A stretch of DNA of 64,000 bases, taken from the NCBI GenBank assembly GCA_024663395.1, contig JANFAH010000002.1, positions 3,348,001 to 3,412,000 of the forward strand, written 5' to 3'. Origin of the DNA: Pisolithus tinctorius (Eukaryota; Basidiomycota; Agaricomycetes; Boletales; Pisolithaceae). Positions 6,479 through 62,850 of this stretch are shown one piece after another. How positions within the stretch are numbered: the first letter of the stretch is position 1; each line of letters begins with the position of its first letter. The notes under the pieces are model-generated. The model made no database searches, was not told the origin of the DNA, and saw nothing but the letters and a program-made list of their open reading frames with translations. The position numbers and the translations under genes were made by a program.

Positions 6479-7965
6479 TACCTTGAGTACCTGGTCTTAT
6501 GAGCAGTCACACTGATGGATATAGAGAAACTTCATAATGATATCCTGACCACACTGCTGGATGACCCAGTCTCACAAATCTGCCTGTCCAACATGTCTAA
6601 TCCCTGGTGGTCAGTAGATGACACCAGTTTCCTTCAGCTTGATGGAAGGGTCTATGTGCCGGACTCAAATGATCTCTGCCTCAGGGTCTTGCAGCTTAAG
6701 CATGACCACCCCCTGTCTGGCCACTTTGGCCAAAACCGAACCCTAGAGCTCATACGGTGTGAATATACCTGGCCCGGCCTCAGGACATTTGTCAAAGACT
6801 ATGTCCAGTCTTTCATGGCCTGTGCTCATGCTAAGGTTCCCCACCATTGGTCTTACAGCCTCCTCAAGCAGCTTCTGGTGCTGGGGAAACCATGGATTTC
6901 ATCAAGCAACTCCTGGCCTCAACTGGCTTCATGGCCATCCTCATAGTAGTTGGCTGGCTTTCCAAGCAGGCCATATTCATCCCAACCCATGACACTATCA
7001 TGGCCCCAGAACTCACCAAACTCTTCTTACTCCATGTCTTCTCTAAGCATGGAGTACCAGCCCATGTAACCTCAGACCGAGGCTCGGAGTTCATCTCTCA
7101 TTTCTTCTGGTCACTTGGTAAGGCCTTAGACATGCACTTACACTTCACCTTGGGCTACCACCCCAAAGGCGATGGTCAGACTGAGAGGACCAACCAAACT
7201 CTTGAGCAATACCTCCAAGTGTACTGCAACTACCAGCAGGACAACTGGGCCGACCTACTACCTTTGGCTGAGTTTGCTTACAATAATGCCCCTAGTGCTA
7301 CTACAGGTGTCTCCCCTTTCTTCACTAATAAGGACTATCATCCCAACATCTCAGTATACCCAGAGTGTGATCTTACCTCTGCTTGGGCTTGTGACTATGC
7401 AGTTGACTTAGACTCACTGCATCAATACCTACAGGAAGAAATGACCTTAGCACAGCAGTGCTATCAAGGACCAGCCAATGCTAAACGCATGCCTGCTCTG
7501 GACTTCAAGGTTGGTGACCAAGTATATGTCAAAGCCAAGTACTTCTGGTCAACCTGGCCTTCCAAGAAGCTCTTGGAGAAAAACCTTGGGCTGTATCCAG
7601 TCATAGCTCAGGCTGGTACCCACTCATTCACACTGCACCTACCAGACTCAATGTGTGCAGTCCACCCGGTCTTCCACATCTCCCAACTCGAGCCAGCTGT
7701 CCTTAATACCATCCCGAACTGGACTCAACCACCACCCCCACCAGTTGAAGTTGATGGTGAACTAGAGTTCAAGGTAGCAGAAATCCTCGACTCTAAGGTC
7801 GACCAGCATCGCTGGTGTTGGCTTCAGTACCTAGTCCAGTGGACCGGCTACGAAGGGACAGACAAGGAAACCACTTGGGTACTTGCTACCAAACTTGACA
7901 ATGCCTCTGAACTCATACAAGAGTTCCACTCCCGCTACCCCAGTAAACCCAGCCCATACCAATGA
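6479..7965 (+). pseudogene. E1 integrase and chromodomain
   Basis: Resumes E1 pol at the TYLEY motif. It holds the HHCC zinc-binding domain (the first Cys of the CxxC pair is now Phe, SFMAC), the DDE core (MDFI, SDRGSEF, GDGQTER) and a C-terminal chromodomain (LVQWTGYEGTDKETTWV). Compared with A1 and E2, 16 bases are missing near 6892, between direct repeats of ATGG, shifting the frame between PWxS and MDFI. Downstream of the shift the frame is open to TGA at 7963. Bases 7966-8143 are 3' noncoding sequence of E1. Confidence 0.88.
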
Positions 7966-8486
7966 GGACCAGTCTCAACTGGCCTCAGTTTCTGTTTCTG
8001 TTTCCTATCGGTATCTAGTGTTCCTTTGATCTCTTACTTACTTTGTTTTCTCTTTCCTGTTTTCTCTTACTTTACTGTAGAACACTGGACACTGGACACC
8101 AGGCACATCACATTCGTGGAGAGGAGTAACAAGGGTGCTATGCTGTCATGACCGTGCCCAGACCACCCCAGACCGGCTCTACCCCGGTCTCGACCGGTCC
8201 TGTCCAACCCTTGCCCCGGTCCCGGCCTTAACCCTTCGACCCAGAAACGTGTTAGCTTGTGAGGCACTGCAAGGCAGTGCCCAGTCGAGTTGTCCCCTCA
8301 GTTAGTACCGGGCCGGTGTAACACCTGGCCCAGCCACATCTCCTGCCCCGGTTCCCGGTAATCCCTTGTTCATACTCTTTGCTTGATAATATTCTTTGTA
8401 ACACTACTTACCAATGTGTTTACCAATCATCGCTGTACCGGTGCAGACCGGTCTCCGGTGCTATGTTACACTTAGGTTACTTCCAG

Positions 8487-8494
8487 TATTTAAG
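8487..8494 (+). promoter_or_regulatory. A1 LTR TATA box
   Basis: TATTTAAG about 30 bases upstream of the TCAGTCTGAAAT segment that is complementary to the primer-binding site. This spacing would put the transcript 5' end at about 8517. The same arrangement is seen in the E LTRs. Confidence 0.6.
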
Positions 8495-8517
8495 CCGTAG
8501 GATAATCTGTTCTAGCC

Positions 8518-8529
8518 TCAGTCTGAAAT
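8518..8529 (+). promoter_or_regulatory. Predicted transcript 5' end / self-primer of A1
   Basis: TCAGTCTGAAAT. Its last ten bases (8520-8529) are the exact reverse complement of 8733-8742, immediately after the LTR. In Tf1/sushi-type elements the first bases of the RNA pair with such a site to prime reverse transcription. Confidence 0.6.
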
Positions 8530-8730
8530 CAACTTAGTTCCCGTCTTAGCCCGGTCTCCCTGTTCATCTGTCTTCTGCTTCTCGACCGGACTACGGCCCA
8601 CGCAAGGGAATAGCGCTGTGTCATCAGTCGCTAAGTCCAACAGTCCAAAACCTTCGATATCTCGTGTTACCCTCTGACCCCCGACCGGACTCTGGACCAG
8701 CCTTGGACCGGTAAAGACCCGGACTTAACA

Positions 8731-8744
8731 GTATTTCAGACTCA
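8731..8744 (+). promoter_or_regulatory. A1 primer-binding site (self-priming type)
   Basis: GTATTTCAGACTCA directly follows the 5' LTR. It does not start with the TGG expected for a tRNA 3' end. It holds ATTTCAGACT, which pairs perfectly with LTR bases 8520-8529. The same 14 bases follow the E2 5' LTR (49969-49982). Confidence 0.65.
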
Positions 8745-8798
8745 CACTTGTGTGGGTCAAACACCCTTCTACTCAATCCTCAGCATCACACCCTCGGC

Positions 8799-10181
8799 AT
8801 GCCTACCCAAACCAGAACCCAAGCAGCACGGGCATGTGCTACCAACAACCCAGATTCCGCCTCAGCAGTCAACTTGTGCTGCACCGCTGCCCTGGTGTCC
8901 TTAGGGACAGCCAGAAGATCACCCGGTGAAGTCAACAACTTCAGGGGCTTCTCAGCCTGTAGATCCACTACCCCCATCCCTAACTGACCTCTCACACCCA
9001 CTAATGATCCGGATGATGAACTGGACCCAGACGAACCAGATGACTTCAATCCTGGTGGTAATGACCCCGGTGATGAAGGTCCTGGCGACGATGGGCCGGG
9101 AGATGACCCGGACAATGACAATGAAGAACCTCTCCCAGAGGATGATGTCGAGCCTGGTGTAACCGTGCTCGATAATCTTGCCAAAGCCATAGAGCTCCTC
9201 GCACGTAATGCTCGCACCGGCTCTGAATCATCCTCCAGAACCAAGCTGCATGAACCAGACACCTTCGATGGGACGGACCCAAAGAAGCTGCGCGCATTCC
9301 TTATCCAGTGCAAACTCAACTTCCGAGACCGGCCCCGGGCCTTTCGAAGTGATCAAGCCAAGGTCACTTTCGTGCAGTCATTTCTTAAAGGAATGGCTCT
9401 CGAGTGGTTCGAACTGGACCTACTTGGGACTGAAGACCCGGAGGACCGGCCCTACTGGATGGACTCTTGGAAGGAGTTCGTCATAGAACTTCAAACAACT
9501 TTCGGACCTCACGACCTGGTAGCTGACGCTGAAAGCCAGCTGGACCACCTCCAGATGAAAGATAATCACCAGGTCAACAAGTATGTGGTCGAGTTCAACC
9601 GGCTTGCCTCACAAGTCCGGGGATACGGTGATGGTGCCCTGCACCACTTCTTCTACACCGGTCTCCCCGACCGTATCAAAGATGAGGTCTGCCAGGTCGG
9701 CAAACCAAGAACCCTTCACGAGCTTTGCCACCTAGTGCAGGAGATTGACGCACGTTACTGGGAGCGCAAAGAGGAGGTTCAGCAGTCTAGTAAACACCAG
9801 GGGTCGTCCTCTGGTAACAAGTCTACTCCCAATCCCGGCCACAACAATCAGTCTAAGCCTGGTCAAGAGAGGTCCAAGACTGGCAATAACTCCGGAAATA
9901 GCAACTCCGGTAACCAAACTCAGTCCAAACCCACCTCGACCGGTCAGACTGGCTCTAACACATCCAAGCTAGACTCAAACAAACTGGGCAAGGACGGCAA
10001 GTTGACACCGGAGGAGCACAAACGCCGTAGAGACAATAACCTTTGCATGTTCTGTGGGGGCACCGGACATTTTGCAGATAAGTGCCCCAAGAAAGCCGGG
10101 AAAGCCAAAGCCTGCGCTGTGGCCACCTCTGAGGCAGCACCAGCCTCAACCTTGGGCTCTGCCCCCGAGGCAAAAAAATAG
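8799..10181 (+). pseudogene. A1 gag (one premature TGA)
   Basis: Starts at the first ATG after the LTR in this frame. About 460 codons: an N-terminal Ser/Thr/Ala-rich part, TGA at 8985-8987 (codon 63, probably CGA to TGA), a very acidic D/P/G-rich stretch, the retrotransposon Gag core (FIQCKLNF through LVQEID, about 9290-9750), an N/S/G/K-rich linker, and a CCHC zinc knuckle (C-MF-C-GGTG-H-FADK-C, about 10046-10087). It ends at TAG 10179-10181, directly behind an A7 slippery run. Gag forms the virus-like particle. The stop would remove everything beyond residue 62 unless read through or restarted downstream. Confidence 0.85.
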
Positions 10182-10219
10182 GTAGCAGCTCTCAGGACTC
10201 TGCACAGACTGAGAGCTGC
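10172..10219 (+). promoter_or_regulatory. -1 ribosomal frameshift signal at the gag-pol junction
   Basis: A slippery heptamer A_AAA_AAA (10172-10178) is in the correct register just before the gag TAG. Six bases later comes a perfect 11-bp hairpin: arm 10185-10195 (GCAGCTCTCAG), 13-base loop, arm 10209-10219. Pol is open in the -1 frame from 10178. E2 has the canonical A_AAA_AAC at the same place (52264-52270) and the same 5' arm. This would set the Gag to Gag-Pol ratio. Confidence 0.85.
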
Positions 10220-12736
10220 GTTGACTCCAGCTGTGCACCCTCGGAGGCCTGCCTCAACACATCCACTCTTTCTAATCCAAACTCATTAACCCCCCATGTT
10301 TCTATCGTCAGTCATGAGTTACCCCGGTTTCGTACACTAGTGGACTCCGGTTCCATGCATAGTTTCATAGATAAAGACTTTGTTAATCGACACTCCTTTG
10401 CCCCTTATCCCGTGTCCCCTATCCAACTCCGGCTCTTTGATGGGTCGTCAAGTTTTGTCATCACTCAAGCAGTAGATCTTTCGGTTCAATTTGCGACCAG
10501 CAATGTCACCCTGGTAACCCTGTTTCTAGCCCCATTGGATTCTGAATGTAAGATAGTCCTTGGACATGACTGGCTCACCCACTACAATCCGTCGATTGAT
10601 TGGGTATTGAGCAGTCTAACTTTCTGGACATCTACAGGAGGAATGCCAACCCCGTCGACACCCCCTGCCACACCGGTCTTAACCGGTCTTCCCAAATCTG
10701 GTCTAACTGACCAACCCAACCCCGGCCCTGCACCATCTGTACCATCTGTCGACTCGCTGGTTCACACCCCCCTGAAAGCTCCCCCTATCACCCTGATCAA
10801 CGCAGCTGCATATGTACGCGCTTGCAAACTAGAGGGATCTACCCAATTCCAACTTCATCTATGCCCATTGGACCCGGTCCTGGCCCGGTCTACTTCTACC
10901 AGTCCTCCACCAGACCTGGCCGGTGTACCAAAGGACTACCACAACTTTGCTGACGTCTTTAGCAAAGCCAAGGCCTCTACTCTCCCCCCACATTGGGAGT
11001 ATGACCTTAAGATTGAATTGGAAGAAGGTACTACACCACCTGTAGGAACCATCTACTCACTATCCCCGGTCGAGCTGCAAGCTCTCCAGGCCTTCATCGA
11101 CGAAAACCTGACTACCGGTTTCATCCGGCCCACCTCTTCCCCCTATGCTGCACCGGTCCTCTTCATAAAGAAGAAGGATGGTTCACTCCGGTTATGTGTT
11201 GACTTCTGGGGCCTTAACAAGCTCACCAAGAAAGACCGGTATCCCCTACCACTAATATCTGACCTACTCGACTCCCCTAGCCACGCCAAAATCTACACTA
11301 AGATCGATTTAAGGCATGCGTACCACCTCGTCCGGATTGCACCCAGGGATGAATGGAAAACTGCCTTCAGAACGCGCTATGGGTCTTACGAGTGGTTGGT
11401 GATGCCTTTCAGTCTTACCAATGCCCTGGCCGCCTTCCAGCGGTTCGTCAATTCAATCTTTGCAGATATGCTAGATGTCTGCATCATCGTCTACCTCGAC
11501 GACATTTTAATCTACTCCGGAGATGAGTCATCGCACAAGCAGCACGTCCGGGAGGTTCTTCGCTGGCTCCGGTTGCATGGCCTGTATGCCAAACCGGAGA
11601 AGTGCGAATTCCACTCGGACTCTGTGGAATACATGGGTTACCACTTGTCCCTGGCCGGCCTTACCATGTCTTCAGAGAAAGTCAAAGCTATCTGCGACTG
11701 GCCTGAACCCCGGAAGGTAAAGGACATTCAGTCCTTCCTGGGTTTCGCCAATTTCTATCGCCAGTTCATCTTTAACTACTCGGACATAGTGGTACCTTTA
11801 ACCCGGTTGACATGCAAAGGTGCTCCCTGGAACTTTTCTGAGGAGTGCCACCGGTCTTTCAATAAACTCAAGCAGGCCTTCACTACTGCCCCGGTCCTAA
11901 CTCACTTTTCCCCGGAGGCTCCTATTACCGTCGAGACTGATGCCTCTGACTACGCCATAGCCGGTATTCTGTCCATCACCGGTGGTGATGGTCAAATCCG
12001 GCCGATTGCATTCTACTCTTGCACCTTAACAGCCCCAGAGCTAAATTATGACACTCATGACAAGGAATTACTCGTGATCTTCGAGGCATTCCGGACATGG
12101 CAGCATTACTTAGAAGGCTCTGCAGTACCGGTTGACATTGTTACCGATCACAAGAACCTGGAGTACTTCTCCACCTCAAAGGTATTAACCCGGCACCAAG
12201 CGCGCTGGTCTGAGTTCTTGTCCCAGTTCAATATGGTTATCCGGTTCAGACCTGGTAAACTCGGTGCTAAGCCTGACGCCCTAACTAGACGATGGGACGT
12301 CTACCCCAAAGAGGGGGATAGCGACTACGCCCGGGTCAACCCACAGAATCTCAGACTGGTCTTCACGCAGGAACAGCTAGCCACCTCCCTGCGTGCCACC
12401 TACCTTGAATACCCGGTCCTACATGCTGTCGCACTGATGGACGTGGAGAAGCTACATAATGATATTCTCTCAGCCCTACCCTCAGACCCGGTCACCCAAG
12501 TCCGGTTCTCAGACACATCAGACTCCCAGTGGTCAGTTGATGACGCCAGCTTCCTCCGTCTAGATGGAAGAATCTATGTACCGGACTCTAATGACCTTCG
12601 CCTTCGTGTCTTGAGGTTTAAACATGATCATCCCTTGTCCGGCCACTTCGGCCAGAACAGGACTCTAGAACTCATCCGGCATGAGTACACCTGGCCTGGC
12701 CTAAGGACATTCGTCAAAGACTATGTCCGGTCTTGT

Positions 12737-13287
12737 CACTGGAAACATTTCTCAGTTTCTTTGCTGAAAACATTTAAAAAAAAGATTGAAAAATGAGACT
12801 CTTTAATTTGGGATGTTTTTGTGAGAAATATTGTAAAAATATTTTGGATTTGTATTGTCTATCATGCCTTACAAAATGCCACTAGAAAATTTTAAAGCTT
12901 TGCATATAAAAAAAATTATGGATGTTCAGCAGAATGATTTTGAACACAATATGTGTGATACATTGTAAATAATTTTCCAATATATGTCACTTTTTTTTAG
13001 AATTAACAATTGGCTTTTTTGTGAGCAGAAAGTTTACAAAGTAGGCAGTATTTGTTTAGTCTAAGTACTGTATTGCAATGATGAATTGTGTGCTGAAGCT
13101 CATATGAAAAACATTCTGCTTTTTTTATGCTCAAACATGTAATATACAGTGAAATATTTTTCAACAAAAAATCAAATCAGAAATAAAGTCTTTCCACATT
13201 AAAATCATAGGTCAAAACATCAAAAATTATTTCTAGATGAAATATTGAGTATATTATTACACATGCCAAGAGCAATTGATACAGTAT
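12737..13287. repeat. Left terminal inverted repeat
   Basis: About 551 bp, mirror image of 15554-16103 with a few percent mismatches. Homology stops after GATACAGTAT. Confidence 0.85.
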
Positions 13288-14340
13288 AATTTGAGAGGCA
13301 CAAGGGAGTCTTTGAACACAGGTCATTCAATGCACACAGAATGTAGTATTAAGTAGTGGACTACTGTATAGTTGTAGATCTTGTGACTGCCATTGCTTTC
13401 AAGTGCATTGCCACTTTGAGCCAAGCTGATCATACTACCATCTGAGTTGCCAGATACTTAGATGATAACAAGTGGCCAATTTTGAAATGGGGGTGCATGG
13501 ATATAGTGGCCTGTGGGTGGCAATGGAACTAATTTTGCAGTGTTTGTAATTACAATTGTGGCTCCCCCTCATCCTCATCCTGCTGCTCCTGCCAGTGGTT
13601 GTCCCATCCATGGTCTGAGCCTCCCTATACCAAGTGCACATGCCTCCCCTACAGCTCTTCTTTAAATACAGCTTTGTACCAATTTAAGTGCCTTGAGGTC
13701 AAAACCTAACAGTCAGGACCACTCACTCTGACAAACTCTGACACTCCCAGAGGGCTAGAACCAAAGTGCAGAGGAAGTTTGACAAAGCAGAGAGGCAGAA
13801 GTGGAGTGAAGGCATTGGGTTCAGCTTGTGTGCTGCCCCCTTGTATGTTACTCAATGGAGGTCAACAGCTGTCAGTTGGGTGCTCTTAGATGAATATGGA
13901 AACTTTGAATAGTGCAACAAAAAGGAATATGTACATACTAGTAGCCTCAGGGAATCCACATGCCCCATCAGTGGATTGGATGTCAGTGGTTGCACATCAC
14001 TAGCTATTGAGCCATTCTGAGGACACAATAAAGCACAATTAGACAACACCATCAGTGGTAGGCAACTACAGTATGAAAGTCACTCACCTTGGTTCCTTCT
14101 GATATGTAATCAACCATGTGTTCCAGGGATCAATGTTGATGTGGTACAAATCATGAGTGGTATGTGACAATGCAAGGTCACATTGGCATGTGTCAATCAT
14201 GATTTGTCTGAAACCAGCCTTTCAGGAGCTTTTTTCTTGGTTTCTTTCTGATTATAGTACACCTGTTTTATTAATTGTTTGTGTAATGGATGACTGCATG
14301 GCTAATCATAGCTGTCAACACTGGGGAACTCCTAAATGAT
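13288..14340. other. Unrecognised cargo of the inverted-repeat transposon
   Basis: No convincing ORF or repeat. A weak resemblance to C-family LTR sequence is seen around 13700-13850 (minus). On the minus strand a short open stretch (14052-13852) has splice-like borders (CCTCAG before, GTGAGT-type donor further upstream), which could be an exon of another captured gene. Confidence 0.35.
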
Positions 14341-14355
14341 ATGCATGAAACTTAC

Positions 14356-14865
14356 TTGACTTTCTTGTCAAGGAACTGCTCAGCAGTCTCATGCATCTTT
14401 GTAAGTACCATGGATGACAGTTCCTCAGCACTCTGGAGAGAACATGAGTTGTCTTACTGATCAAAACATTTGCCATGACATATGAATTGTTGGCTCTTGC
14501 TACCAATGTCAACCTCAACAGCTGGTCAAGCATCTGACTTCTCAGCAATTTTGAATGTTCTGTAGACAATATAAGATGCTGTCCTGTTTGACAGTTGTTG
14601 CATGTACTAACCAGTGCTTCAAGTCCTCCTGGACATCCACACCCTTGAACTTGCAGCCAATCAAGCCCTTAAATGTGAAGACAGTGTTGATGGATTAACC
14701 ACTGCTTGACACTTGGCAGGCAGGCCAATGAGATGCTCCCCATGTTTTGTGAAGGCCACTACTGATGGGGTTGTCCAGGCACCTTTGGAGTTCTCAGTCA
14801 CACATGCCTGCTTGCCCTCTATGATGGAAATGATGAACTTGTTGTACCAAGGTCAATTCCAACCA
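14356..14865 (-). pseudogene. Captured mitochondrial-type HSP70 fragment
   Basis: The minus strand encodes, with frameshifts and stops, the start of an HSP70 ATPase domain: GIDLGTT (the phosphate-binding loop, about 14860-14840), [20 protein letters not shown] and QAVVNP in the correct order, then about 14440-14360 the KMHETAEQFL segment. Motif spelling (GLPAKxQAVVNP) fits the DnaK/Ssc1 (mitochondrial) class better than cytosolic HSP70. The coding similarity ends at a GTAAGT donor (14355-14350), so genomic DNA with an intron was captured, not cDNA. Only about 130 residues remain and the reading frame is broken. Not a functional chaperone. Confidence 0.8.
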
Positions 14866-15003
14866 TGAGGCTTTCAATAAATGCCAAACTTTTTTTTTTC
14901 CTGCAGGAGGGTCATCAACATACCAGTGACTTTAGAGTTCATGTTCCCCATGATTGAGGACCACAGGATGTCCTGTATGAGTGAGGGTGTGGTTCCCAGC
15001 ATG

Positions 15004-15527
15004 TGTCAAGTCTGAGGTTACCAGGTTCAAGACTGGACCAGAGACTGGTACAGGCATGAGGTCAAGGGGTCAGGGATCAGATGGTGTACTGTTTGGACTT
15101 AGTGACTGATGACACAGCACTGTTCCCTTGTGTGGGTCACAGTCCAAGTCCAAGGCTGAGGCAGAGGATTTCAGATGAGACTTATTTGATTTCAGACTGA
15201 GGGAATACAGGCCAAGTATCTATGGGTTTACATACTAGGGGTAACTATAGTATGAAGACTGGTAATGCCAGTCTCACAGAGATTGGTAACTGATTGGTAA
15301 GAATGGTATTAGTAAGTCATGACAAAGATAACCAGAGACTGGGACAGAGACAAGGGCAGACTGGGGACAAGGCTGGGTCAGGCTCAACCAAAATGACACT
15401 TCATAGCAGCACTTCAAAGCAGTGCTAACTGTGCTAGACCAACTGGGGGTAGGGATTTGGCAAGGGTGAGGCTGGACTGAGTGAGTGCAAGGCTGAGTCT
15501 GGCTGGGGTCAAGGCATGGCTACAACA
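15004..15527 (-). repeat. Solo E-family LTR
   Basis: 524 bp, TGTCAAG...CTACAACA, the reverse complement of the E LTR, with 5-bp TSD GCATG (14999-15003 and 15528-15532). It inserted after the inverted-repeat element had formed, and its internal region was then lost by LTR-LTR recombination. Confidence 0.88.
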
Positions 15528-15553
15528 GCATGCCATATCTGCATCAGCATACC

Positions 15554-16103
15554 ATACTGTATCAATTGCTCTTAAAATGTGTAATAATATACTCAATATT
15601 TCATCTAGAAATAATTTTTGATGTTTTGACCTATGATTTTAATGTGGAAAGACTTTATTTCTGATTTGATTTTTTGTTGAAAAATATTTCACTGTATATT
15701 ACATGTTTGAGCATAAAAAAAGCAGAATGTTTTTCATATGAGCTTCAGCACACAACTCATCATTGCAATACAATACTTAGACTAAATAAATACTGCCTAC
15801 TTTTTAAACTTCCTGCTCACAAAAAAGCAGATTGTTAATTCTAAAAAAAAGTGACATATATTGGAAAATTATTTACAATGTATCACACATATTGTGTTCA
15901 AAATCATTCTGCTGAACATCCATAATTTTTTTATATGCAAATATTTAAAATTTTCCAGTGGCATTTTGTGAGGAATGATAGACAATACAAATCCAATATA
16001 TTTTTACAATATTTGTCACAAAAACATCCCAAATTAAAGAGTCTCATTTTTCAATCTTTTTTTAAAATGTTTTCAGCAAAGAAACCGAGAAATGCTTCCA
16101 GTG
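15554..16103. repeat. Right terminal inverted repeat
   Basis: About 550 bp, reverse complement of 12737-13287, ending CCAGTG before the TGT duplication. Confidence 0.85.
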
Positions 16104-17456
16104 TGTACTACCTGCGCCCGGGCCAAGGTACCTTGCCACCGGCCTTACGGCCTGCTCAAACAGCTCCCCATGCCAGAGAAGCCATGGAATTCCATCTCGA
16201 TGGATTTCATAGAGCAACTCCCGGCCTCAACCGGCTTTACTGCCATCCTCGTCGTGGTCAACCGGCTCTCAAAGCAAGCCATCTTCATACCTACTCACGA
16301 CACCATCACAGCCCCTGAGCTCGCCAAACTCTTCCTCATGCACGTGTTCTCTAAGCACGGTGTACTGGCCCATGTAACCTCAGACCGGGGATCAGAGTTC
16401 GTATCTCACTTCTTCCGGTCTCTAGGTAAAGCTCTAGACATGCGTCTACATTTCACCTCCAGGTATCACCCAGAGGGGGATGGTCAGACAGAGTGCACCA
16501 ACCAGACCCTCGAACAGTATCTCCGGGTCTACTGCAACTATCAGCAGGACAACTGGGCCGAACTACTACCGCTAGCTGAGTTTGCCTACAACAATGCACC
16601 CAGCGCTATGACTGGGGTATCACCCTTCTTCGCCAATAAGGGTTATCACCCTAATATCTCGGTCTTCCCTGAGCACGACCTCACATCCAACCGGGCTCGT
16701 GATTATGCAGTGGACTTAGATTCACTGCACCAGTACCTACGTGAAGAAATGGCTCTCGCCCAGCAACGCTACCAAGGACCAGCAGATGCTAAGCGCATGC
16801 CAGCCCCAGACTTCAAAGTGGGCAACAATGTCTATGTAAAAGCCAGGTACTTCCGGTCGACCCGGCCCTCCAAGAAACTAAGTGAGAAGAACCTTGGGCC
16901 CTACCCCATAATAGCCCAGGCCGGCTCTCACTCATTCACCCTGCATCTACCAGACTCTATGCGCGCTGTACACCCGGTCTTCCACGTTTCCCAGCTTGAA
17001 CCAGCCATCCCAAATACCATACCCAACCAGTCTCAACCTCCACCCCCACCAGTAGATGTCAACGGCAATTTAGAATTCGAGGTAGCAGAGATACTCGATT
17101 CAAAGGTCGACTGGCGCAGAAGGTGTTGGTTGCAGTACCTGGTCCGGTGGACTGGTTATGAGGGAACTGACGAAGAAACTACCTGGGTGTTAGCAACAGA
17201 GCTGGACAACGTGTCAGAACTCGTTCAAGAGTATCATGACCGGTACCCGCACAAACCCAGTCCCTTTCAGAAATAATCCAGAACCGGTCTCAAGTTTCCT
17301 TTCTCTTTATCTGTTTCTCCTATCTAGTACTTACTATGTCTTGATTTCCTTTATTTTTCTCTATATTGTTTTCTTTCACACTTCAGAACTGGAACCGGGC
17401 ATTGGCATTCACAAAGCTTACAGAAAGGGAAGGTACTACTCTACATGCACGCGACC

Positions 17457-18496
17457 TCAGACTTGGGACCCAGCGGAACCGGCACCGGCCTGATCACCTG
17501 ACTCAGACCGGGACCGGCTTTCCTCCTCTTCCTCCATCAGCCCCTCCAACTCATCGTCGAGTCCCTCGACTTCCCTGTCTTCCTCGTCGGTGGTGTCCTG
17601 GTCTGAAGGCACTTCCGGCGCCAGGAATTCGAAGCGCTCTTCAACGTAGGTTTCATACGACCAGGCGAACCGGTGGAAGTTTCAGGAAACCTCCTTTTGC
17701 GCTGTCGCAAGACTGGCCATGTTGTCAGCCACACGCTCCACCGCCTTGATCAGGCACTCCATCTGATCGCCAGTAACAGGACCGGCCCCAGTCTCAGCGC
17801 CAGTCTTCTTCGTCGAAGGCCCCTCCTCTACATCGTCCTCCTCGTCACCTGCACCCTCAGTTACCTTTGCAGATGGACGTTGCGACCTCTTCTTCTTCTC
17901 ACCCACACAAGGGGACGTCACATCTGCTTTCCTCTTCCCCTTGTCCCCAGCCGGCCCAGCACCGGCCTCACCTTCGACTGGCCACCGGCAGCACTCCTTG
18001 AGCTCGTTGCACCGGTTACACGCCATGCGCTTCTTCTTACCATCGGTGCTGCGCAGGCAAGGCGTGTTGGTCCAGGCGCAGCAAAGGCAACTGTTGGAAT
18101 GTTAGTCATCAACACCAATGATGGTCGTCACAGTACTCACTGAGGACTCATCACCTCGACGTTTGGCCCGGCCCCGGTGGAACTACCAACCAGGGCATCA
18201 GCCCGCCGGCTCTCAGCCTCCTTTCTGGCCTCTTCAGCCTTGCACGCAGCCTCTATCCTCTGTGCCTCTGCCTCTGCGCGTGCCCTTTCCTCTTCGAGCC
18301 GGGCTTGCTCCTGCCTCTCAGCCTCCAACTGGGCTTCCTCCTGCGCCTTTGCCTTGCACCTCTTACACTCAGCCAACTTGCCCCAGATGGCCTCGTCGTC
18401 ATCGTCGCTGCCTACCTGCAGCTCTGTGCTCGTCGCCCGGGTCAGGTTGGGCAGTATGTCTTGATCGTATGGTGTTCTGGACCGGCGAATAGACAT
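17457..18496 (-). CDS. Antisense spliced accessory gene of A1 (coiled coil plus Cys motif)
   Basis: Gene on the strand opposite to pol, between the pol stop and the 3' LTR. Exon 1 is 18496-18141; a 50-bp GT-AG intron follows (18140-18091, donor GTGAGT, branch-like CTAAC, acceptor CAG, phase 2); exon 2 starts at 18090. Residues about 1-45 are polar and acidic (GSDDDDE), about 45-105 a charged E/A/R/K-rich coiled coil, then a Cys cluster with the pattern C-x2-C-x6-C-x14-C-x2-C-x5-C ending in a C-R-W-P motif, then a Lys-rich linker and a helix (ECLIKAVERVADNMASL). TGA at 17682-17684 interrupts the frame, which otherwise runs acidic to TGA 17457. Related genes lie at the same place in every A/E copy. 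No known function; the Cys cluster suggests zinc binding. Confidence 0.7.
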
Positions 18497-18614
18497 GTTG
18501 AAGTGAGGAGACAAACCTGAGGTGGACCGGTCTTAAGTCCCCTGGTTTTCAAGGTCAGACACAAAATTTTCGATCTCAGCATTGTCCTCATTGGAGCCTC
18601 ATGGGCTTGGCTCC

Positions 18615-18627
18615 AAGAGGGGGATAC
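18615..18627 (+). promoter_or_regulatory. A1 polypurine tract
   Basis: CAAGAGGGGGATAC directly before the 3' LTR. E1 (20424-20436) and E2 (58260-58272) have AAGAGGGGGATAC at the same place, and A2 has its reverse complement (32946-32958). Confidence 0.75.
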
Positions 18628-19214
18628 TGTCATGACCGTGCCCAGACCACCCCAGACTGGCTCTACCCCAGTCTCGACCGGTCCTGTCCAACCCTTGCCC
18701 CAGTCCCGGCCTTAACCCTTCGACCCAGAAACGTGTTAGCTCGTGAGGCACTGCAAGGCAGTGCCCAGTCGAGTTGTCCCCTCAGTTAGTACCAGGCCGG
18801 TGTAACACCCGGCCCAGCCACATCTCCTGCCCCGGTTCCCGGTAATCCCTTGTTCATACTCTTTGCTTGATAATATTCTTTGTAACACTACTTACCAATG
18901 TGTTTACCAATCATCGCTGTACCGGCGCAGACCGGTCTCCAGTGCTATGTTACACTTAGGTTACTTCCAGTATTTAAGCTGTAGGATAATCTGTTCTAGC
19001 CTCAGTCTGAAATCAACTTAGTTCCCGTCTTAGCCCGGTCTCCCTGTTCATCTGTCTTCTGCTTCTCGACCGGACTACGGCCCACACAAGGGAATAGCGC
19101 TGTGTCATCAGTCACTAAGTCCAACAGTCCAAAACCTTCGATATCTCGTGTTACCCTCTGACCCCCGACTGGACTCCGGACCAGCCTTGGACCGGTAAAG
19201 ACCTGGACTTAACA
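18628..19214 (+). repeat. A1 3' LTR
   Basis: 587 bp, near-identical to 8144-8730 with a few transitions, mainly at CpG sites. Followed by the TSD TATGC (19215-19219). Confidence 0.95.
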
Positions 19215-19227
19215 TATGCTACAAAAC

Positions 19228-20296
19228 CTACTCGGCCATGCTCTCATCCTCCTCTTCGGACCCTTCCTCCTCATCCTCACCATGTGCTTTCAACCACTCA
19301 GCCTCCTCACATAGCTTGTTGGAGTCGAGCTCAGAAGAGCCTGAGTCTGAGGGTGAGACTGCCATGCTGAAGCTGTAGGACTCGTCGAGCATCACCTCGA
19401 GCATGTTGGCAATCCTACCAGAGTTCTCAGCCACAGTCTCATGGGCCTTGAAGCGGCCCACCAGGCTGTTCGCAATAAGCCCTGCAACATTGATCAAGCG
19501 CTCAAGCTTGTCTTCCAAGCCTGAGAACACTGTCGCACTGGGCCCCCTCAGTCTGCTCCCACTGGCCTCATCTTCATTGATGTCCAGCACCTCCAGCGGC
19601 TTCTCAACGGCCTTTGCCTTCTTCTTACTAGGCCTGGGCTTGGGCATTTTGTTGTCGGCCTTCCTCTTTTTCCCCTTGTCAGCTTTGAGAGCAGCCTTAG
19701 GACCAGCCTCAGCATCCTTCCCATCCCCAGGCTACCAGCACTTGCCTTTGGACTGGTTGCACTGTATGCAGGTGACCTGCTTCTTGTTACCATCCATGAG
19801 GAACTCACAGATGGTATTCGCCTGGGTGCAGTGGGTACAACTAAAAAGGTTGTTAAGAGGGATACACACAAGTTTGGAAAGGTACTCACCCAGGGTTCAT
19901 AACCACCTTTTTTACTTTGCTGGCCTTGCTACCACCAGCCCTGGCTTCGTTACCCTTCCTGGCCTCAGCCTTGCATCTTCACTCGGCCTCCCTTTCCTCC
20001 TCAGCCTTGTGTCTCTCCTCCTCCTCATGCACCCTTTGCTCCTCAGCCTCCTGTGCTACCCTCTCAGCCTCAACTCACTCCCTCTCCACTCACTTGGCCT
20101 CAAGCCAAGCCTGCTCCTCCTGCCAGGCTTGTTCAGCTGCCTTTTGCCTCTTCCTTTCCTTCGATTTGGCCTTCATTACCTCTTCCTCATCATCAGTGTT
20201 GTACCTAATCTTGTTGTCAGGTACTTGGGTCCAGTCGATGATGGCCTGGCCCTCATTGTTGTTATTGGCAGTGACAATCAGTCTTGAGTCAGACAT
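19228..20296 (-). pseudogene. Antisense spliced accessory gene of E1
   Basis: E-family version of the reverse-oriented gene. Exon 1 is 20296-19890 (ATG in MSDSRLIV, acidic segment, then a long E/K/A-rich coiled coil with in-frame stops); a 49-bp intron (19889-19841, GTGAGT...TAG) has the same phase-2 position as in A1; exon 2 is 19840-19228. Exon 2 opens with C-TH-C-x6-C, then C-IQ-C-NQSKGK-C, where a TAG has replaced the Gln of the CQWP motif. A predicted helical region follows (LEDKLERLINVAGLIANSL) and an acidic tail (EEDESMAE-stop). Decayed, but the architecture is clear. Confidence 0.7.
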
Positions 20297-20436: not shown

Positions 20437-20962
20437 TGTCATAGTCATGTCTCGACCCTGGCTGGACTCAGCCTTGCACTCACTCAGTCTGGCCTTGGCC
20501 TTGCCAATCCCATATCCCCGGTTGGTCTAGCATGGTGAACACTGCTTTGCAGTGTCTGTCACTTCAGATAAGTCCTGCCCAGTCTTGTCCCTGGTCCACC
20601 TGTCCTGGTCTCCATTACCTTAGTCATACATTACTAATACTTGTCTTACCAATCACCTTAGCAATCCTTGCAAGACTGGCATTACCAGTCTCTGTACTAT
20701 AGCTACTTCTAGTATATAAACTCGTAGATGCTTGGCCTGTACCTCTCAGTCTGAAATCAACAAAGTTTATCCTGTTAACCCCGTCTCAGCCTTGGACTTG
20801 GACTGAGACCTACACAAGGGAATAGTGCTGAAACCTCAGTTGCTAAGTCCAAATAGTCCAACCATCTGTATCCTCGACTCCCCTCTTGATCCCAACCCCT
20901 CAGCATCATGCCTGCTTTGGTCTCCAGTCTGGCCTCAACCTGGACAACCCATGAACTTGACA
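20437..20962 (+). repeat. E1 3' LTR
   Basis: 526 bp, TGTCATAGTC...GAACTTGACA, preceded by AAGAGGGGGATAC. Contains TATATAAAC and the shared TCAGTCTGAAATCAAC start-site motif. It abuts F1 gag at 20963, so E1 inserted into F1. Confidence 0.9.
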
Positions 20963-24055: not shown

Positions 24056-26550
24056 TGTCATATCCATGACTCTCAGACTCAATCCCAGTCCAGTCTGAAC
24101 CCCTAGCCCCTAACTCCAGTCAAGTCCGGTCCTAGTCTGGCCTAGAAAACCTAACCCCAGCCTAGAGAACACAACTCCAGTCCTAGATAACCCAACTCAG
24201 GCCTAGGTAACTCAAGTCTGGTCTTTTACCCCTATCTCTGGTCCATTCCAGCCTCCTGGCCTTGTGCTGCTCCACCCTGGTCCTCCCAGGTCCATGTCTG
24301 GGTCACACAGACATAACTCCAGTCTGTTTCCTGTTGTTTGTACTATATTTAGTCTAGTCCCCCTTGCTGATCCTTGCTTACAGTACAAACCTGTGTCTGA
24401 CTCCAGTTATGCTGGTCACCCAGACTTTAACTATTAGTCTTGGCACAGCCTCCATGGCTGTCCACACCTTGCTAATCCTCTCACTAATAGCTTATTCACA
24501 AGTTCAGCTTCATGTTCATTATCCCAGACTGGCCTTGTGTATTTACAGTGAGGGACAAAAGTGTTGCAATGTGTGTGAGATGTGACTTGTTGGTGATGTA
24601 GCTTGGGCTATTCTGCACAGATAATCGTGATACCTATACTATTGGAAAGGGGTGACTCTAAGCTTTCCAGCGCACTAAGGTTCGGTCCAAACAAAGCAAT
24701 ACATGCTGAGATACACCCTATTCTTTCCAAAAAGTGTGTTGCGACACTTTTGTCCCTGACTAGTGAAATAGTGAAAAGTGACCTTTTGATGGGATTGAGG
24801 GCATGAAGGATGGGAGAATATGATTACATAATAAACCACATGATCAACCAGATGATTTGTCAGCATGTAAACAATGAGAAAAATTGGACTTGTACCATTA
24901 ATCCTCCCTCTTTTACCACAACTCATGAAATCATCTCTCTAGCTCACATGGTCATTTTCTCAAGGAATTCTTATCAAATGCTGGTGGCCACCACAGTGCC
25001 ATCAGTATGACATGCTCTCAGAACCATCAGTCTCTTAAAAAACCTGCTATCAGTCATTTCCTGGACTGTTTCCCTCCCCATGCCTGATGTGTTCTGGGAC
25101 TAATCAGTACTTGGAAGGCTGAAAATGTTATGGAGGTCAATCTGGCACTTCAGAACATGATGTACAAACCAGTCCCCTCTCAACCAATGCATTTCTGGCA
25201 CAGGGACAGTGGTTTGGAAGTTGGGGTGAGACAAAACCTCCTTGTGCTCTGAGCACCATAAGAGGGTTCACTAGATCTTGCTCTGATCTGAACTGTAGAT
25301 GACTGGGGAAGGATTATTTGGTCATATGTGACCCAAGGCAATATTCAGGGCCAGATGGAAGCACAGGATTCTGCTCCATGGCAGTTCAGTAGCATATCCT
25401 TCTGATGACACCCAGGGGTAAAGAGGATTTTGTCTTGCCCTAACTTCCATACCACTGTCCCTGTGCCAGAAATGCATTGGTTGAGAGGGGATTGGTTTGT
25501 TCACCATGTGCTGAAGTGCCAGATTGACCTCCATAACATTTTCAGCCTTCCAAGTACTGATTAGTCCCAGAACACATCAGGCATGGGGAGGGAAACAGTC
25601 CAGGAAATGACTGATAGCAGGTTTTTTAAGAGACTGATGGTTCTGAGAGCATGTCATACTGATGGCACTGTGGTGGCCACCAGCATTTGATAAGAATTCC
25701 TTGAGAAAATGACCATGTGAGCTAGAGAGATGATGTCATGAGTTGTGGTAAAAGAGGGAGGATTAATGGTACAAGTCCAATGTTTGTCATTGTTTACATG
25801 CTGACAAATCATCTGGTTGATCATGTGGTTTATTATGTAATCATATTCTCCCATCCTTCATGCCCTCAATCCCATCAAAAGGTCACTTTTCACTATTTCA
25901 CTAGTCAGGGACAAAAGTGTCACAACACACTTTTTGGAAAGAATAGGGTGTATCTCAGCATGTATTGCTTTTTTTGGACCGAACCTTAGTGCGCTGGAAA
26001 GCTTAGAGTCACCCCTTTCCAATAGTATAGGTATCATGATTATCTGTGCAGAATAGCCCAAGCTACATCACCAACAAGTCACATCTCACAAACACTGCAA
26101 TGCTTGTGTCCCTCACTGTAACCCCTGTACATACTTCATAGCTCCTCAGTCAGAATATCAACTTAGTATTACCCTCAACTCCATATTACCCCTCAAGACT
26201 ACTCTATAGCTAAGGCCAAGCCTTAAGCTATCCCCAGCCCCTGTCCTGCCCTCTCCCCAGCTTGCAGAAGGGTACAGCACATAAGCTGAAACCATGGGAG
26301 GTAGGTCCAACCCCAGACCAGCTTCCCCCTGTGTGCACCCCAAGACCAGCTGGTTTCCCATGGTCCTGGTCTTGTTCCCATGCTCCCAGTCTTAAGTCTG
26401 GAGGACTGGACTTAACCCCTAACCTCCGGCCTTAACTCCAGCCCAACTGGACTTAACCCCTGTCTCCCAGCCTTAACTTCGGCCACCTGGACTAGCCCCT
26501 GTCACCTGGTCTTGAAGCCTGGTCACCCAAGGGTAAACCTGTACTTAACA
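24056..26550 (+). repeat. Solo G-family LTR G1 (interrupted)
   Basis: About 920 bp when the foldback at 24546-26118 is removed. TGTCATATCC...GTACTTAACA, TSD GACCC (24051-24055 and 26551-26555). Both ends contain short degenerate tandem subrepeats (TAACTCxxGTC; CTGGACTTAACCCC). Confidence 0.9.
24546..26118. mobile_element. Tc1/mariner-type foldback element 1
   Basis: 1,573 bp, CAGTGAGGGACAAAAGTG...CACTG, flanked by TA on both sides (24544-24545 and 26119-26120), with nearly identical inverted arms of about 700 bp (24546-about 25241, about 25421-26118) and a spacer of about 180 bp. Both arms carry the same decayed open stretches, one of them (EIISLAHMVIFSRNS) resembling the helix-turn-helix of a Tc1-type transposase. 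It sits in the G1 LTR, where uninterrupted copies read TTTAACC. Confidence 0.85.
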
Positions 26551-33076: not shown

Positions 33077-33690
33077 ATGTCTATTTGCCAGTCCAGAACA
33101 CCATACAACCAAGATCTGTTGCCTGACCTGACCTGGGTGATGAGTGAAGAGCTGCAGGTGGGCAGCGATGATGATGACCAGGCCATCTGGGGAAAGTTGG
33201 CCAAGTGCAAGAGGCACAAAGTGAAGGCCCAAGAGGAAGCCCAGTTGGAGGCTGAGAGGCAAGAGCAGGCCCAGCTTGAGGAGGAACAGGCACATGCAGA
33301 GGGTGAGGGGCAGAGGGTAGAGGCTGTGTGCAAGGCTGAAGAGGCCAGGAAGGCAGCTGAGAGCCAGTGGCAGATGCCCTGGTGGGTGGCTTGACTGGGA
33401 CCAGGTCCAATGTTGAGGTGATGAGCCCTCAGTGAGTATTGTGATGATTATTACTGGTGTTCCTGGCTAACATTCCGCCAGCTGCCTTCATTGTGCCTGG
33501 AACAACATGCCCTGCCTGCACAGCACTGACAGCAGGAAAAGGCACATGGCATGCAACCAGTGCAATGAGCTCAAGGAGTGCTGCCAGTGGCCAGCCAAGG
33601 GCAAGACCAGTCAGGGAGCTGGCCCAGCTGCTGACAAGGGTAAGAGGAAGGCAGATGTGTGTAGAAAGATCTGTAGGCTACCTCAGTAGT
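33077..33690 (+). pseudogene. Accessory gene of A2 (antisense to the element)
   Basis: Third copy of the reverse-oriented gene, on the plus strand because A2 is on the minus. Exon 1 is 33077-33431 (MSIxxSRTPY start, GSDDDD acidic block, E/A/Q/R-rich coiled coil); a 50-bp intron, 33432-33481 (GTGAGT...CTAAC...CAG, phase 2), lies at the same position as in A1. Exon 2 gives C-LH-C-x6-C and C-NQ-C-NELKE-CC-QWP followed by the Lys-rich linker. A frameshift lies near the end of exon 1. Similarity to A1 ends at about 33657 (after KADV), and the ORF then runs by chance to TAG 33690. Confidence 0.7.
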
Positions 33691-40023: not shown

Positions 40024-40397
40024 TGACAGATGGATGGTGTTTCCAGACAGGGAAGTATTAACTCCAGAACTGAAGGGCATGGGTCAGGTGTCAAAGGGGC
40101 TAGGGTGTTGGGGGTCTGTGGGGCAATGGGAGCATAAGTGATCATGTCTCCCATCCTTTCATCCTCTCAGCAAAGTTAACAAAAACTTCATGAATGGGGG
40201 TCTGATGGAGGAGGAGAAGGGGGGACATCTTCTGCTGGATCTTGCAGTAAGAAGGCAAGATGCACATCATACTTGTCATGGATGCAATCAGGGAGGATGG
40301 AGAACAGTAGATTATGCTGCAGCTGTTGAAATGTGGGGAGAACAATGGACAAGATTGGAATAAAGACAGTGCAGGGAGCAGGGAGGAATGATCCATA

Positions 40398-57096: not shown

Positions 57097-58151
57097 CTAC
57101 TCAGCTTTGGCCATGTTTTCATCTTCCCCCTCAGCTTCCTCTTCCTCACCCTCAGCCTGCAGCCACTCTGCTTCCTCATGCAACTCATCTGAGTTGAGCT
57201 TGGATGAGCCCAAGTCTGAAGGGGTGACTGCCACCCTGAAGCCATAGGATTTGTCAAGTTTTGACTCAAGGGTGTTGGTGATTTGGCCTAAGCCTAAGTT
57301 CTCAACAGCAGTCTCATGAAGTTTGAAAAGGCTGGCCAGGTTGTTGGCAATCAGCCCTGTGGCCTCAATCAATTGCTTGAGCTTGCTCTCCAAGGCTGAG
57401 TATCTGGCTACACTGGCCTCTTTCAGTCCACTCCTGCCAGCCTTGGGTTCATTGAGGTCCAAGATCTCAACCAGCCTCACACTTGTCTTTGCCCACTTCT
57501 GTTTGCTGGGCCCAGCCTCAGTGTTCTCTTTGTTAACCTTCCACTTTTTCCCCTTGTTGACCTTCCCAGTGACCTTCAGGCCAGCCTTGGCATCCTTCCT
57601 GTCCCTGGGCCACTGGCACTTGCCCTTTGATTGATTGCACCAGACACAGGCAACCCATTTTTTGTTGCTGTCCATGAGGAATTCACAGACAACTTGAGCC
57701 CAGGCACAATGGGTGCAGCTAAAAAAGAACATCAAGAGGAATGTGCACAAAGTTGGGAGGGTACTCACCTGGGGTCCATAACCACCTTTTTCACCTTGCT
57801 AGCCTTGCTACCACTGGCCCCAGCTTCATCATCCTTCCCAGCCTCAGCCTTGCGCTTTCACTTGGCCTCCCTTTCCTCCTCAGCCTTGTGCCTCTCCCCT
57901 TCAGCCTCATGCACTACCCTCTCAGCCTCAATCTGCTCCCTCTCCACTCTCTCAGCCTCCAGCCATGCCTGCTCTTCCCACTGGGCTTGTTCAGCCACCT
58001 TTCACCTCTTCCTCTCTTTTGCCTTGGCCCTCATCATCTCCTCTTCATTGTTGGTGTCATACTTGATGGCATCATCCAACACCTGGGTCCAGTTGATAGG
58101 GACCTGGCCTTTGTCACTGTCAATCATGATGGTCAGTCTTGAGTCAGACAT
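57097..58151 (-). pseudogene. Antisense spliced accessory gene of E2
   Basis: Best-preserved E-type copy. Exon 1 is 58151-57769 (MSDSRLT start, DxxQVPINWTQV, coiled coil with two stops), intron 57768-57719 (50 bp, GTGAGT...TAG, phase 2), exon 2 57718-57097, open for 206 codons. Cys cluster C-TH-C-AWAQVV-C-x12-C-VW-C-NQSKGK-C-QWP, Lys-rich linker, EILDLNEP, helix (LESKLKQLIEATGLIANNLA), acidic E-rich C-terminus. Bases 56922-57096 between pol and the gene are 3' noncoding. Same position and orientation as in A1, E1, A2 and J. Confidence 0.75.
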
Positions 58152-62237: not shown

Positions 62238-62850
62238 CTACTTGGCCTTGGCCATGGTCTCATCCTCCCCTTTGGCCTCCTCCTCCTCATCCTTGCTGTG
62301 GGTCTTCAGCCAGTCAGCCTCCTTGCACAACTCATTGGAATCAAGCTCAGATGAGCCCAAGTCTGCTGGGGATACCACCATCCTGAAGCCATAAGACTCA
62401 TTGAGAAGTGCCTCAAGCACACCAGTGATCTGGCTGGAGTTTTCAACTGCAGTCTTGTGGAGTTTGAAGAGGCTGGCCAGGTTGTTGGCAATCAGCCCCA
62501 TGGCATCAATCAGCCAGTTGAGCTTCCCTTCCAAGCCTGAGTACTGCACTGCATTGGACTCCCTCAGTCTACTCCCACCAGCCTTGGGTTCATTGAGGTC
62601 CAGTACCTTGATCAGCTTGACACTCACCTTGACCCACTTCTTGCTTGGTCCAGGCTCAGGTGTCTCCTTGTCGACTTTCCATTTTTTGCCTTTGTTGACC
62701 CTCCCAGCAGCCTTAAGACTGGCCTTGGCATCTTTCCTGTCCCCAGGCCATCATCACTTCTCTTTCAATTGGTTGCACTGGATGCAGGCAACCTGCTTCT
62801 TCTTGCCATCTATGAGGAACTCACAGATGACTTTTGCCCAGGTACATTAT
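62238..62850 (-). pseudogene. Antisense accessory gene of J, exon 2 only
   Basis: Fifth copy: from ICEFLIDGKKKQVACIQCNQ through a damaged CxWP, Lys-rich linker, LDLNEPKAGGSRL, GLEGKLNWLIDAMGLIANNLA, to the acidic tail and TAG 62238. The intron, exon 1 and first CxxC pair are cut away at about 62850, where unrelated sequence begins. Confidence 0.7.

What the first reader, a model, noticed from the sequence alone, without database searches (positions are those of the whole stretch)
17457..20296. A spliced, reverse-oriented accessory gene travels in the 3' end of A/E Ty3 elements
Between pol and the 3' LTR, every A/E copy with that region in the window has a gene on the opposite strand: 18496-17457 (A1), 20296-19228 (E1), 33077-33690 (A2), 58151-57097 (E2), 62850-62238 (J). 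Four copies show a 49-50 bp GT-AG intron at the same phase-2 site, just before a Cys cluster (CxxC...C...CxxCx5C then WP). Around it are a charged coiled coil and an acidic or helical C-terminus. A and E versions differ widely in sequence yet keep this architecture, which argues for a functional protein. Being antisense to the element, it must have its own promoter near or in the 3' LTR, and its transcript would overlap element RNA. It could be a regulator, an antisense control system, or a captured host gene.
Basis: partly seen in the sequence, partly recalled or inferred. Interest (0 to 1): 0.88.

Follow-up and report, generated by a model that had tools for sequence, protein, structure and literature searches.

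The report
Retrotransposon's backward zinc-cluster regulator gene
Hundreds of copies of one jumping-gene family in the mushroom Pisolithus tinctorius carry, written backwards behind their main genes, an extra gene whose protein sequence natural selection conserves; the protein is predicted to enter the nucleus and bind DNA, and would likely regulate the element's own ends, which would make a gene class of unknown use testable.

Summary
The window is from Pisolithus tinctorius. In 60 of 60 genomic copies examined the gene is convergent to the integrase end of a Ty3 chromovirus; 59 of 60 have a phase-2 GT-AG intron of 46-54 nt and 27 of 60 are fully open, their ATG 120-139 nt from the 3' LTR. 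The frame is under purifying selection: N/S at shared non-CpG sites is 0.17 (A) and 0.22 (E) of expectation; integrase gives 0.04 and 0.02. One near-complete A copy, its LTRs identical over 516 nt, has gag, pol and this gene all open. The Cys cluster has fungal Zn2Cys6 spacing, but its halves match LEU3 in swapped order, and Pfam scores stay below cut-off. Likely work: an element-encoded nuclear regulator of its own LTRs. For: A-type LTRs are packed with GACCGG/CCGGTC (8-12 vs about 0.5 expected). Against: the CCGG bias is element-wide, a gene-free sister family has a CCGC bias, and uneven CpG decay is not excluded. Antisense accessory genes are known in plants and Botrytis Boty; I found no report of a zinc-cluster one.

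The parts
8144..8730 (+). 5' LTR of element A1 (TSD TATGC at 8139-8143)
   Evidence: 97.6% identical to 18624-19200; ends read
16092..17276 (+). C-terminal part of A1 pol (integrase, chromodomain-like end), convergent to the antisense gene
   Evidence: 394 aa ORF; used as query
18141..18496 (-). A1 antisense gene exon 1: N-terminus and coiled coil
   Evidence: coiled coil in models of two relatives
18091..18140 (-). A1 predicted intron, 50 nt, GTGAGT...CAG, phase 2
   Evidence: phase-2 intron in 59 of 60 loci
17457..18090 (-). A1 antisense gene exon 2: zinc-cluster-like Cys6 domain, basic stretch, helix, acidic tail; premature stop at 17684-17682
18497..18627 (-). 131-nt gap between antisense ATG and the 3' LTR, holding the PPT; likely part of the antisense promoter (inferred)
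   Evidence: promoter not tested
18628..19214 (+). 3' LTR of A1 (TSD TATGC at 19215-19219), rich in GACCGG/CCGGTC
   Evidence: window bins with 4 or more motifs lie over both A1 LTRs and also at 10501-11250
19890..20296 (-). E1 antisense gene exon 1 (decayed)
19841..19889 (-). E1 predicted intron, 49 nt
19228..19840 (-). E1 antisense gene exon 2 (decayed)
20437..20900 (+). E1 3' LTR (starts TGTCATAG after AAGAGGGGGATAC; end not delimited)
33077..33690 (+). A2 copy of the antisense gene (element on - strand): frameshifted exon 1, intron 33432-33481, truncated exon 2
57097..58151 (-). E2 antisense gene, intron 57768-57719; exon 2 open, exon 1 with stops
62238..62850 (-). J copy: exon 2 only, with stops

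Best explanation
Ty3 chromoviruses of Pisolithus tinctorius carry, antisense between pol and the 3' LTR, a gene with a predicted intron whose protein frame is kept by purifying selection, and the protein is predicted to be a nuclear, coiled-coil, zinc-cluster DNA-binding factor that would likely bind CGG-bearing motifs in its own LTRs and raise or protect their transcription. Shown: position, strand, frame, intron site, selection, the six conserved cysteines, and motif-packed A-type LTRs. Inferred: transcription from a promoter in or beside the 3' LTR, splicing, zinc and DNA binding, nuclear entry, the sign of the effect (activation or anti-silencing), and that the LTR motifs are its sites. 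Because the intron lies on the strand opposite to the genomic RNA, reverse transcription would keep it. In outline it would work like HTLV-1 HBZ (antisense, nuclear factor; spliced and bZIP by recall) or the VANC proteins of Arabidopsis VANDAL elements.
For: Arrangement in 60 of 60 loci. N/S 0.17 (A, 21 genes) and 0.22 (E, 6 genes) of expectation. One near-complete A copy (3' LTR cut at the fetched edge) has LTRs identical over 516 nt and open gag, pol and antisense frames. Each of the six Cys kept in 58-59 of 60 loci, with Zn2Cys6 spacing. Zn_clus is the Pfam family matched by most members (17 of 60 proteins; 12 of 19 domains), always below cut-off; the only PDB matches of the domain profile are the zinc-cluster regulator LEU3 (E 0.031 and 0.15, both halves aligned, in swapped order). 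Basic NLS-like stretches after the cluster and acidic tails in both types (read; NLS motif recalled). A LTRs: 8-12 GACCGG/CCGGTC against 0.4-0.6 in shuffles in 5 of 5 tested; over A coding sequence CCGG is the top 4-mer and CCGGTC/GACCGG the top 6-mer under synonymous shuffling (z 14.0 and 11.0), with no CCGG excess in 8 of 8 other retroelement loci. A and E antisense proteins are 37-40% identical over three pairs and their LTRs 64%, while the RT-to-integrase part of pol is 94% identical at similar dS.
Against: No RNA, binding or localisation data. Pfam scores stay below the 21-bit cut-off (best 17.9), and other families sometimes give lower E-values (Antifungal_prot 0.0021, Usp 0.014, MAP7); a single-sequence PDB search gave only an unrelated chain at E 0.21. 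AF2 confidence at the cluster is low (block means 42-65) and Foldseek on the E model found no PDB match (A model not searched). The CCGG bias is element-wide, not LTR-only (GACCGG/CCGGTC per kb: LTR 17-21, gene 9.4, pol 7.5, gag 5.6). Family C, which lacks the gene, has a CCGC bias in pol (z 9.2 by dinucleotide, 3.9 by synonymous shuffle). E LTR motifs are weaker, and 1 of 5 E LTRs tested (L032) shows none. In A copies CCGG sites are kept as often as DCGH but more often than CCGH/DCGG (LTR 0.69 vs about 0.50), so uneven decay could feed the excess. gag (73%) and the N-terminal part of pol (81%) also differ between A and E.
Confidence: 0.42

Rival explanations
1. The protein works in the retrotransposition cycle itself, for example as a nucleic-acid chaperone or nuclear-import or integration adaptor, with the basic stretch and Cys6 cluster touching RNA or cDNA rather than LTR promoters.
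For: Kept beside an open gag and pol in one young copy; long coiled coil for protein contacts; basic stretches. Plant antisense genes have been discussed in this sense (PMC7264820, passages).
Against: Sister family C has no such gene with a related pol (76% identical to A over 599 aa). Far faster divergence than gag or pol at similar dS suits a partner that changes, such as LTR sequence or host silencing.
Confidence: 0.27
2. The protein acts on the host (for instance as inhibitor of silencing or rival of a host transcription factor) rather than on LTR motifs.
For: Fast divergence between A and E (dN/dS 0.38-0.52 over three pairs) against 0.17-0.22 within types (a different estimator); copies decay by CpG transitions, which points to methylation of the elements (inferred).
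Against: Does not explain the dense family-specific LTR motifs; no host homologue found.
Confidence: 0.18
3. The antisense transcript, not the protein, is what matters: it pairs with element RNA and feeds or evades RNA silencing.
For: Convergent arrangement overlapping element RNA in 60 of 60 loci; such a role has been proposed for plant elements (PMC7264820, passages).
Against: Purifying selection in one codon frame, not in most others, and conserved cysteines.
Confidence: 0.08
4. A captured host gene or passive cargo with no role for the element.
For: None beyond the general habit of retroelements to capture genes.
Against: Same site and intron in both A and E types, selection in both, no host relative found, 30-39% identity between types while held in place.
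Confidence: 0.05

Closest known systems
Antisense accessory ORFs between pol and 3' LTR of plant Ty3/gypsy elements (Grande gene23, RIRE2, Retand TRP28)
   Same: Same place and strand, present in most copies; Grande's product is reported as nuclear and driven by its own promoter (PMC7264820 passages); Retand's TRP28 is predicted to bind DNA (PMC11963269 passages).
   Different: Those are plant elements, Retand being non-chromovirus; the passages seen mention no zinc cluster; no sequence relation was tested here.
Boty brtn (Botrytis cinerea, Sclerotinia; Zhao et al. 2011, only cited in papers seen)
   Same: Fungal element with chromodomain; extra antisense gene between pol and 3' LTR.
Fungal Zn2Cys6 (GAL4/LEU3-type) regulators, PF00172
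   Same: Cys spacing, coiled coil, acidic tail; LEU3 is the only PDB hit of the domain profile. LEU3's CCG-N4-CGG type site is recalled; CCGGNNCCGG occurs 5 times in the window against 0.05 expected, as the CCGG-rich A1 alone might give.
   Different: Below Pfam cut-off; halves match in swapped order (positions 19-34 to LEU3 1-16, positions 1-16 to LEU3 26-41; same tendency); coiled coil lies before, not after, the cluster.
VANC anti-silencing proteins of VANDAL transposons (PMC5735166, abstract and sections 8 and 11)
   Same: TE-encoded factor, here proposed to act through short motifs dense in its own family; related families differ in factor and motif.
   Different: VANDALs are DNA transposons (recalled); VANC motif binding and hypomethylation are measured; here nothing is measured and the motif bias also covers coding sequence.
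HTLV-1 HBZ (passages, and recall)
   Same: Antisense gene at the 3' end of an LTR element, nuclear; HTLV has an antisense promoter inside the 3' LTR.
   Different: HBZ is a bZIP protein of a retrovirus (recalled); no homology claimed or tested.

Membership tests
Antisense accessory ORF of Ty3/gypsy elements (aORF-3R) | ORF antisense to gag-pol between pol and 3' LTR | tested here: met
   60 of 60 loci convergent to integrase; PPT/LTR edge recognised upstream in 48 of 60
Antisense accessory ORF of Ty3/gypsy elements (aORF-3R) | Kept in most copies with sequence conservation | tested here: met
   150 of 476 candidates scored for E, 150 of 513 for A, lists capped; N/S 0.17-0.22. The share of all A/E elements that carry it was not counted.
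Antisense accessory ORF of Ty3/gypsy elements (aORF-3R) | Antisense transcript from its own promoter | not testable with these tools
   No RNA data held
Zn2Cys6 fungal binuclear cluster (PF00172) | C-x2-C-x6-C-x5-12-C-x2-C-x6-8-C spacing (recalled) | tested here: met
   Each Cys present in 58-59 of 60 loci; alignment of 19 domains
Zn2Cys6 fungal binuclear cluster (PF00172) | Pfam gathering score of 21 bits | tested here: not met
   Best 17.9 bits on an isolated domain; 17 of 60 proteins match at E<=1, best 0.04
Zn2Cys6 fungal binuclear cluster (PF00172) | Order of halves: basic half first, as in host proteins | tested here: not met
   Our second half aligns to the first half of LEU3 and our first half to its second; three host domains show the usual order. 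Scores are weak.
Zn2Cys6 fungal binuclear cluster (PF00172) | Fold | tested here: inconclusive
   Two mini-helices start at the CxxC pairs but confidence is low; no Foldseek hit for the E model
VANC-type anti-silencing system | Short motif dense in own family and rare in other TEs | tested here: inconclusive
   CCGG bias strong in A, weaker in E, absent in 8 of 8 other loci and 3 of 3 host loci, but family C has CCGC bias without the gene
VANC-type anti-silencing system | Protein binds the motif and removes silencing marks | not testable with these tools
   Needs binding and methylation assays
Boty brtn family | Sequence homology to brtn | not tested
   brtn sequence not at hand

The most novel reading that the evidence does not exclude
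An LTR retrotransposon that encodes, on its opposite strand, a half-swapped (permuted) zinc-cluster factor which recognises CGG motifs that the element has written over its LTRs and even its coding sequence, with factor, LTR and motif diverging together between sister families while the RT-to-integrase part of pol stays 94% identical: a self-recognition (activation or anti-silencing) system in a fungal retroelement, parallel to VANC in plants and HBZ in retroviruses.
Probability: 0.27. Interest if true: 0.87.

Novelty: new variant of a known kind. Interest (0 to 1): 0.66.

Why it matters
Antisense accessory genes recur in Ty3 elements, and a 2020 review calls their functions unknown (PMC7264820, passages). 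This one has a recognisable DNA-binding-like domain, hundreds of matches in one genome, two diverged types and a gene-free sister family beside them, plus a concrete candidate target motif, so the question of what such genes do becomes directly testable. It would also show how a fungal retroelement keeps expressing itself in a genome where its copies decay by CpG loss.

Tried and rejected
Sense-strand coding: overlapping sense frames exist (294 aa in E1, 307 aa in L070). For A the codon-aligned mirror frame gives N/S 0.31 against 0.17 in the antisense frame, so I treat them as a mirror effect; E sense frames were not tested. Uneven CpG decay as cause of the CCGG excess: only partly rejected. 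Kept fractions for CCGG, DCGH, CCGH, DCGG are A LTR 0.69, 0.69, 0.49, 0.57; A gene 0.63, 0.68, 0.57, 0.46; E gene 0.22, 0.28, 0.29, 0.25; E LTR 0.38, 0.38, 0.34, 0.32. So in A CCGG outlasts CCGH/DCGG, which could contribute; against it, partly decayed other families show no CCGG excess. Recombination as cause of the A-E contrast: dS is of one order for gag 2.23, pol 0.79-1.36 and antisense 1.16-1.70, so no swap is needed; values near saturation are rough. Pfam on decayed window copies gave nothing useful; codon models in IQ-TREE printed no omega; Foldseek on the E model gave no match; NCBIfam gave only TolA-like and other low matches to the coiled coil; the first spliced-model script was wrong because loci on the minus strand are not turned, and was redone; one script timed out. 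Paper searches touching this question showed no report of this gene in the listings; long listings were seen only in part, and the library lacks most subscription journals.
Full report
Source. The window lies at C2:3348001-3412000 of a 92.5 Mb genome.

Observation. Four show the GT-AG intron of 49-50 nt; J lacks exon 1. All five are decayed by stops, a frameshift or truncation. A1 spans 8144-19214 with LTRs 97.6% identical over 577 nt and a TATGC target duplication, and appears to sit inside E1, splitting E1's pol from E1's antisense gene.

Genome-wide copies. Searches with exon 2 filled the tool's scoring limit: 150 of 476 candidates scored for E, 150 of 513 for A (151 matches, with fragments and some E copies among them; a few contigs look like duplicates). 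I count 108 of the 150 E matches without a stop. I modelled the 60 loci handed out (30 best of each type, so not a random sample). 59 of 60 have a phase-2 intron of 46-54 nt, 51 of 60 with donor GTGAGT; 27 of 60 are open from ATG to a normal end (21 A, 6 E), 328-346 aa. In 60 of 60 the integrase end lies on the opposite strand downstream, in most open models 180-190 nt from the antisense stop. In the 27 open models the ATG lies 120-139 nt from the 3' LTR edge; a clear PPT was found in 48 of 60 loci. L069 is a near-complete A element: LTRs identical over 516 nt (its 3' LTR is cut at the fetched edge), with open frames for gag (483 codons), pol (1257 codons) and the antisense gene. L070, an E element, has a stop in pol but an open antisense gene (L031).

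Selection. At polymorphic sites shared by at least two copies and not CpG transitions, N:S is 54:113 in A and 50:70 in E, which is 0.17 and 0.22 of the random expectation; open integrase segments of 30 loci (23 A, 7 E, not the same set as the 27 genes) give 0.04 and 0.02. Reading the A gene in five other frames gives 1.60, 2.22, 1.69, 3.04 and, for the codon-aligned mirror frame, 0.31. Shared CpG transitions run near neutral (0.88 and 0.84), the mark of decay. Only intact copies entered, which excludes nonsense but should not favour silent change. Between A and E, dN/dS is 0.03 and 0.15 in two parts of pol, 0.09 in gag (one pair of elements) and 0.38-0.52 in the antisense gene (three pairs), at dS of the same order. 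So the gene is constrained within types yet diverged fast between them: the RT-to-integrase part of pol is 93.9% identical, its N-terminal part 80.6%, gag 72.9%, the antisense proteins 37-40% in those pairs (30-39% in the larger alignment).

Protein. Order: short N-terminus, long charged coiled coil (AF2 helix 31-105 or 37-115, pLDDT over 90 in most of it), Cys6 cluster, basic NLS-like stretch, second long helix, acidic tail. The six cysteines have the spacing of fungal zinc clusters. UniRef names 11 of 69 and 39 of 120 listed relatives 'Zn(2)-C6 fungal-type' (my counts of truncated names). Pfam Zn_clus is the family matched by most members but stays under its cut-off, and other families sometimes score a lower E-value. 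The domain profile finds only LEU3 in the PDB, E 0.031; a single-sequence search found only an unrelated chain at E 0.21. In the LEU3 alignment our positions 19-34 fall on its residues 1-16 and our positions 1-16 on its residues 26-41; Pfam pieces run the same way and hhalign puts our second half on the start of host domains (probability 18%). I read this as a half-swapped zinc cluster, an inference from weak but consistent scores.

Distribution. Three searches found the protein only in Pisolithus: 68 of 69 hits in P. tinctorius and one in P. orientalis, 120 of 120 listed of 178 in P. tinctorius, 64 of 64. A related chromovirus family C (L005, L008, L075; pol 76% identical to A over 599 aa) passes from its pol stop through about 44 nt with the PPT directly into its LTR; L008 with L075 showed no Zn2Cys6 pattern.

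Motifs. The A LTRs tested (5 of 5) hold 8-12 GACCGG/CCGGTC against 0.4-0.6 in dinucleotide shuffles; E LTRs 0-5 against 0.2-0.5, one of five showing none, plus GGCCTCG/CTCGGC repeats in the three looked at. In A, CCGG is the most enriched 4-mer over gag, pol and antisense gene when codons are shuffled among synonyms (150 against 74, z 14.0), while CCGC, CCGA and ACGG are depleted. Internal A sequence has 154 CCGG against 43 by dinucleotide shuffle, E 105 against 42; three host loci give z -1.1 to -1.7 and L004 -1.1; 8 of 8 other retroelement loci show no CCGG excess. Against the simple reading: family C shows CCGC 53 against 18.7 in pol without having the gene (its LTR z 2.2 for CCGC, 2.4 for CCGA), and in A copies CCGG outlasts CCGH/DCGG sites during decay. 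So a family-specific CCGN bias is a wider habit of these chromoviruses; the LTR packing in A, and the joint divergence of LTR and protein between A and E, are what speak for a link to the protein.

Mechanism. The most economical reading is an element-encoded nuclear factor that recognises its own LTRs and favours their transcription, either as an activator or by keeping silencing off. Antisense placement would give it a promoter that does not depend on gag-pol expression and would preserve its intron through reverse transcription. I hold the functional protein as near certain (about 0.95), the nuclear DNA-binding class as likely (about 0.65), and action on its own LTRs as somewhat less than even (0.42).

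Known context. [quoted passage not shown] PMC11963269, passages; PMC8365987 and PMC4227169, passages; Zhao 2011 itself not seen). Their functions are called unknown in PMC7264820. VANC (PMC5735166, abstract and sections 8 and 11; PMC10398659, abstract) is the best functional parallel. The Pisolithus comparative genomics paper (PMC10066745, passages only) discusses TEs; the passages do not mention such a gene. Papers named only in search listings were not read.

Noticed in passing
L008 (C13:1127748-1131041), family C: A sister chromovirus family without the antisense gene has an excess of CCGC in pol (53 vs 18.7, z 9.2) and a deficit of CCGG (2 vs 9.7); each chromovirus family seems to favour its own CCGN tetramer. 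Cause unknown.
   Followed up: partly
window 24543-26121 and 40388-41995: Two long inverted repeats (724 nt arms 96% complementary with 131 nt between; 696 nt arms 99% complementary with 216 nt between), possible foldback or hairpin loci.
   Followed up: no
window 8144-19214: Element A1 appears nested in element E1 (TSD TATGC), between E1's pol and E1's antisense gene.
   Followed up: partly
L069 flank, oriented 1-1366: DNA next to a young element has CpG observed/expected 0.00, showing extreme CpG loss in what is probably old repeat DNA.
   Followed up: no
L070 oriented 7375-8295; window 19403-20287: Long sense-strand ORFs (307 and 294 aa) overlap the E-type antisense gene; judged a mirror effect of its codons, tested for A only.
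   Followed up: partly
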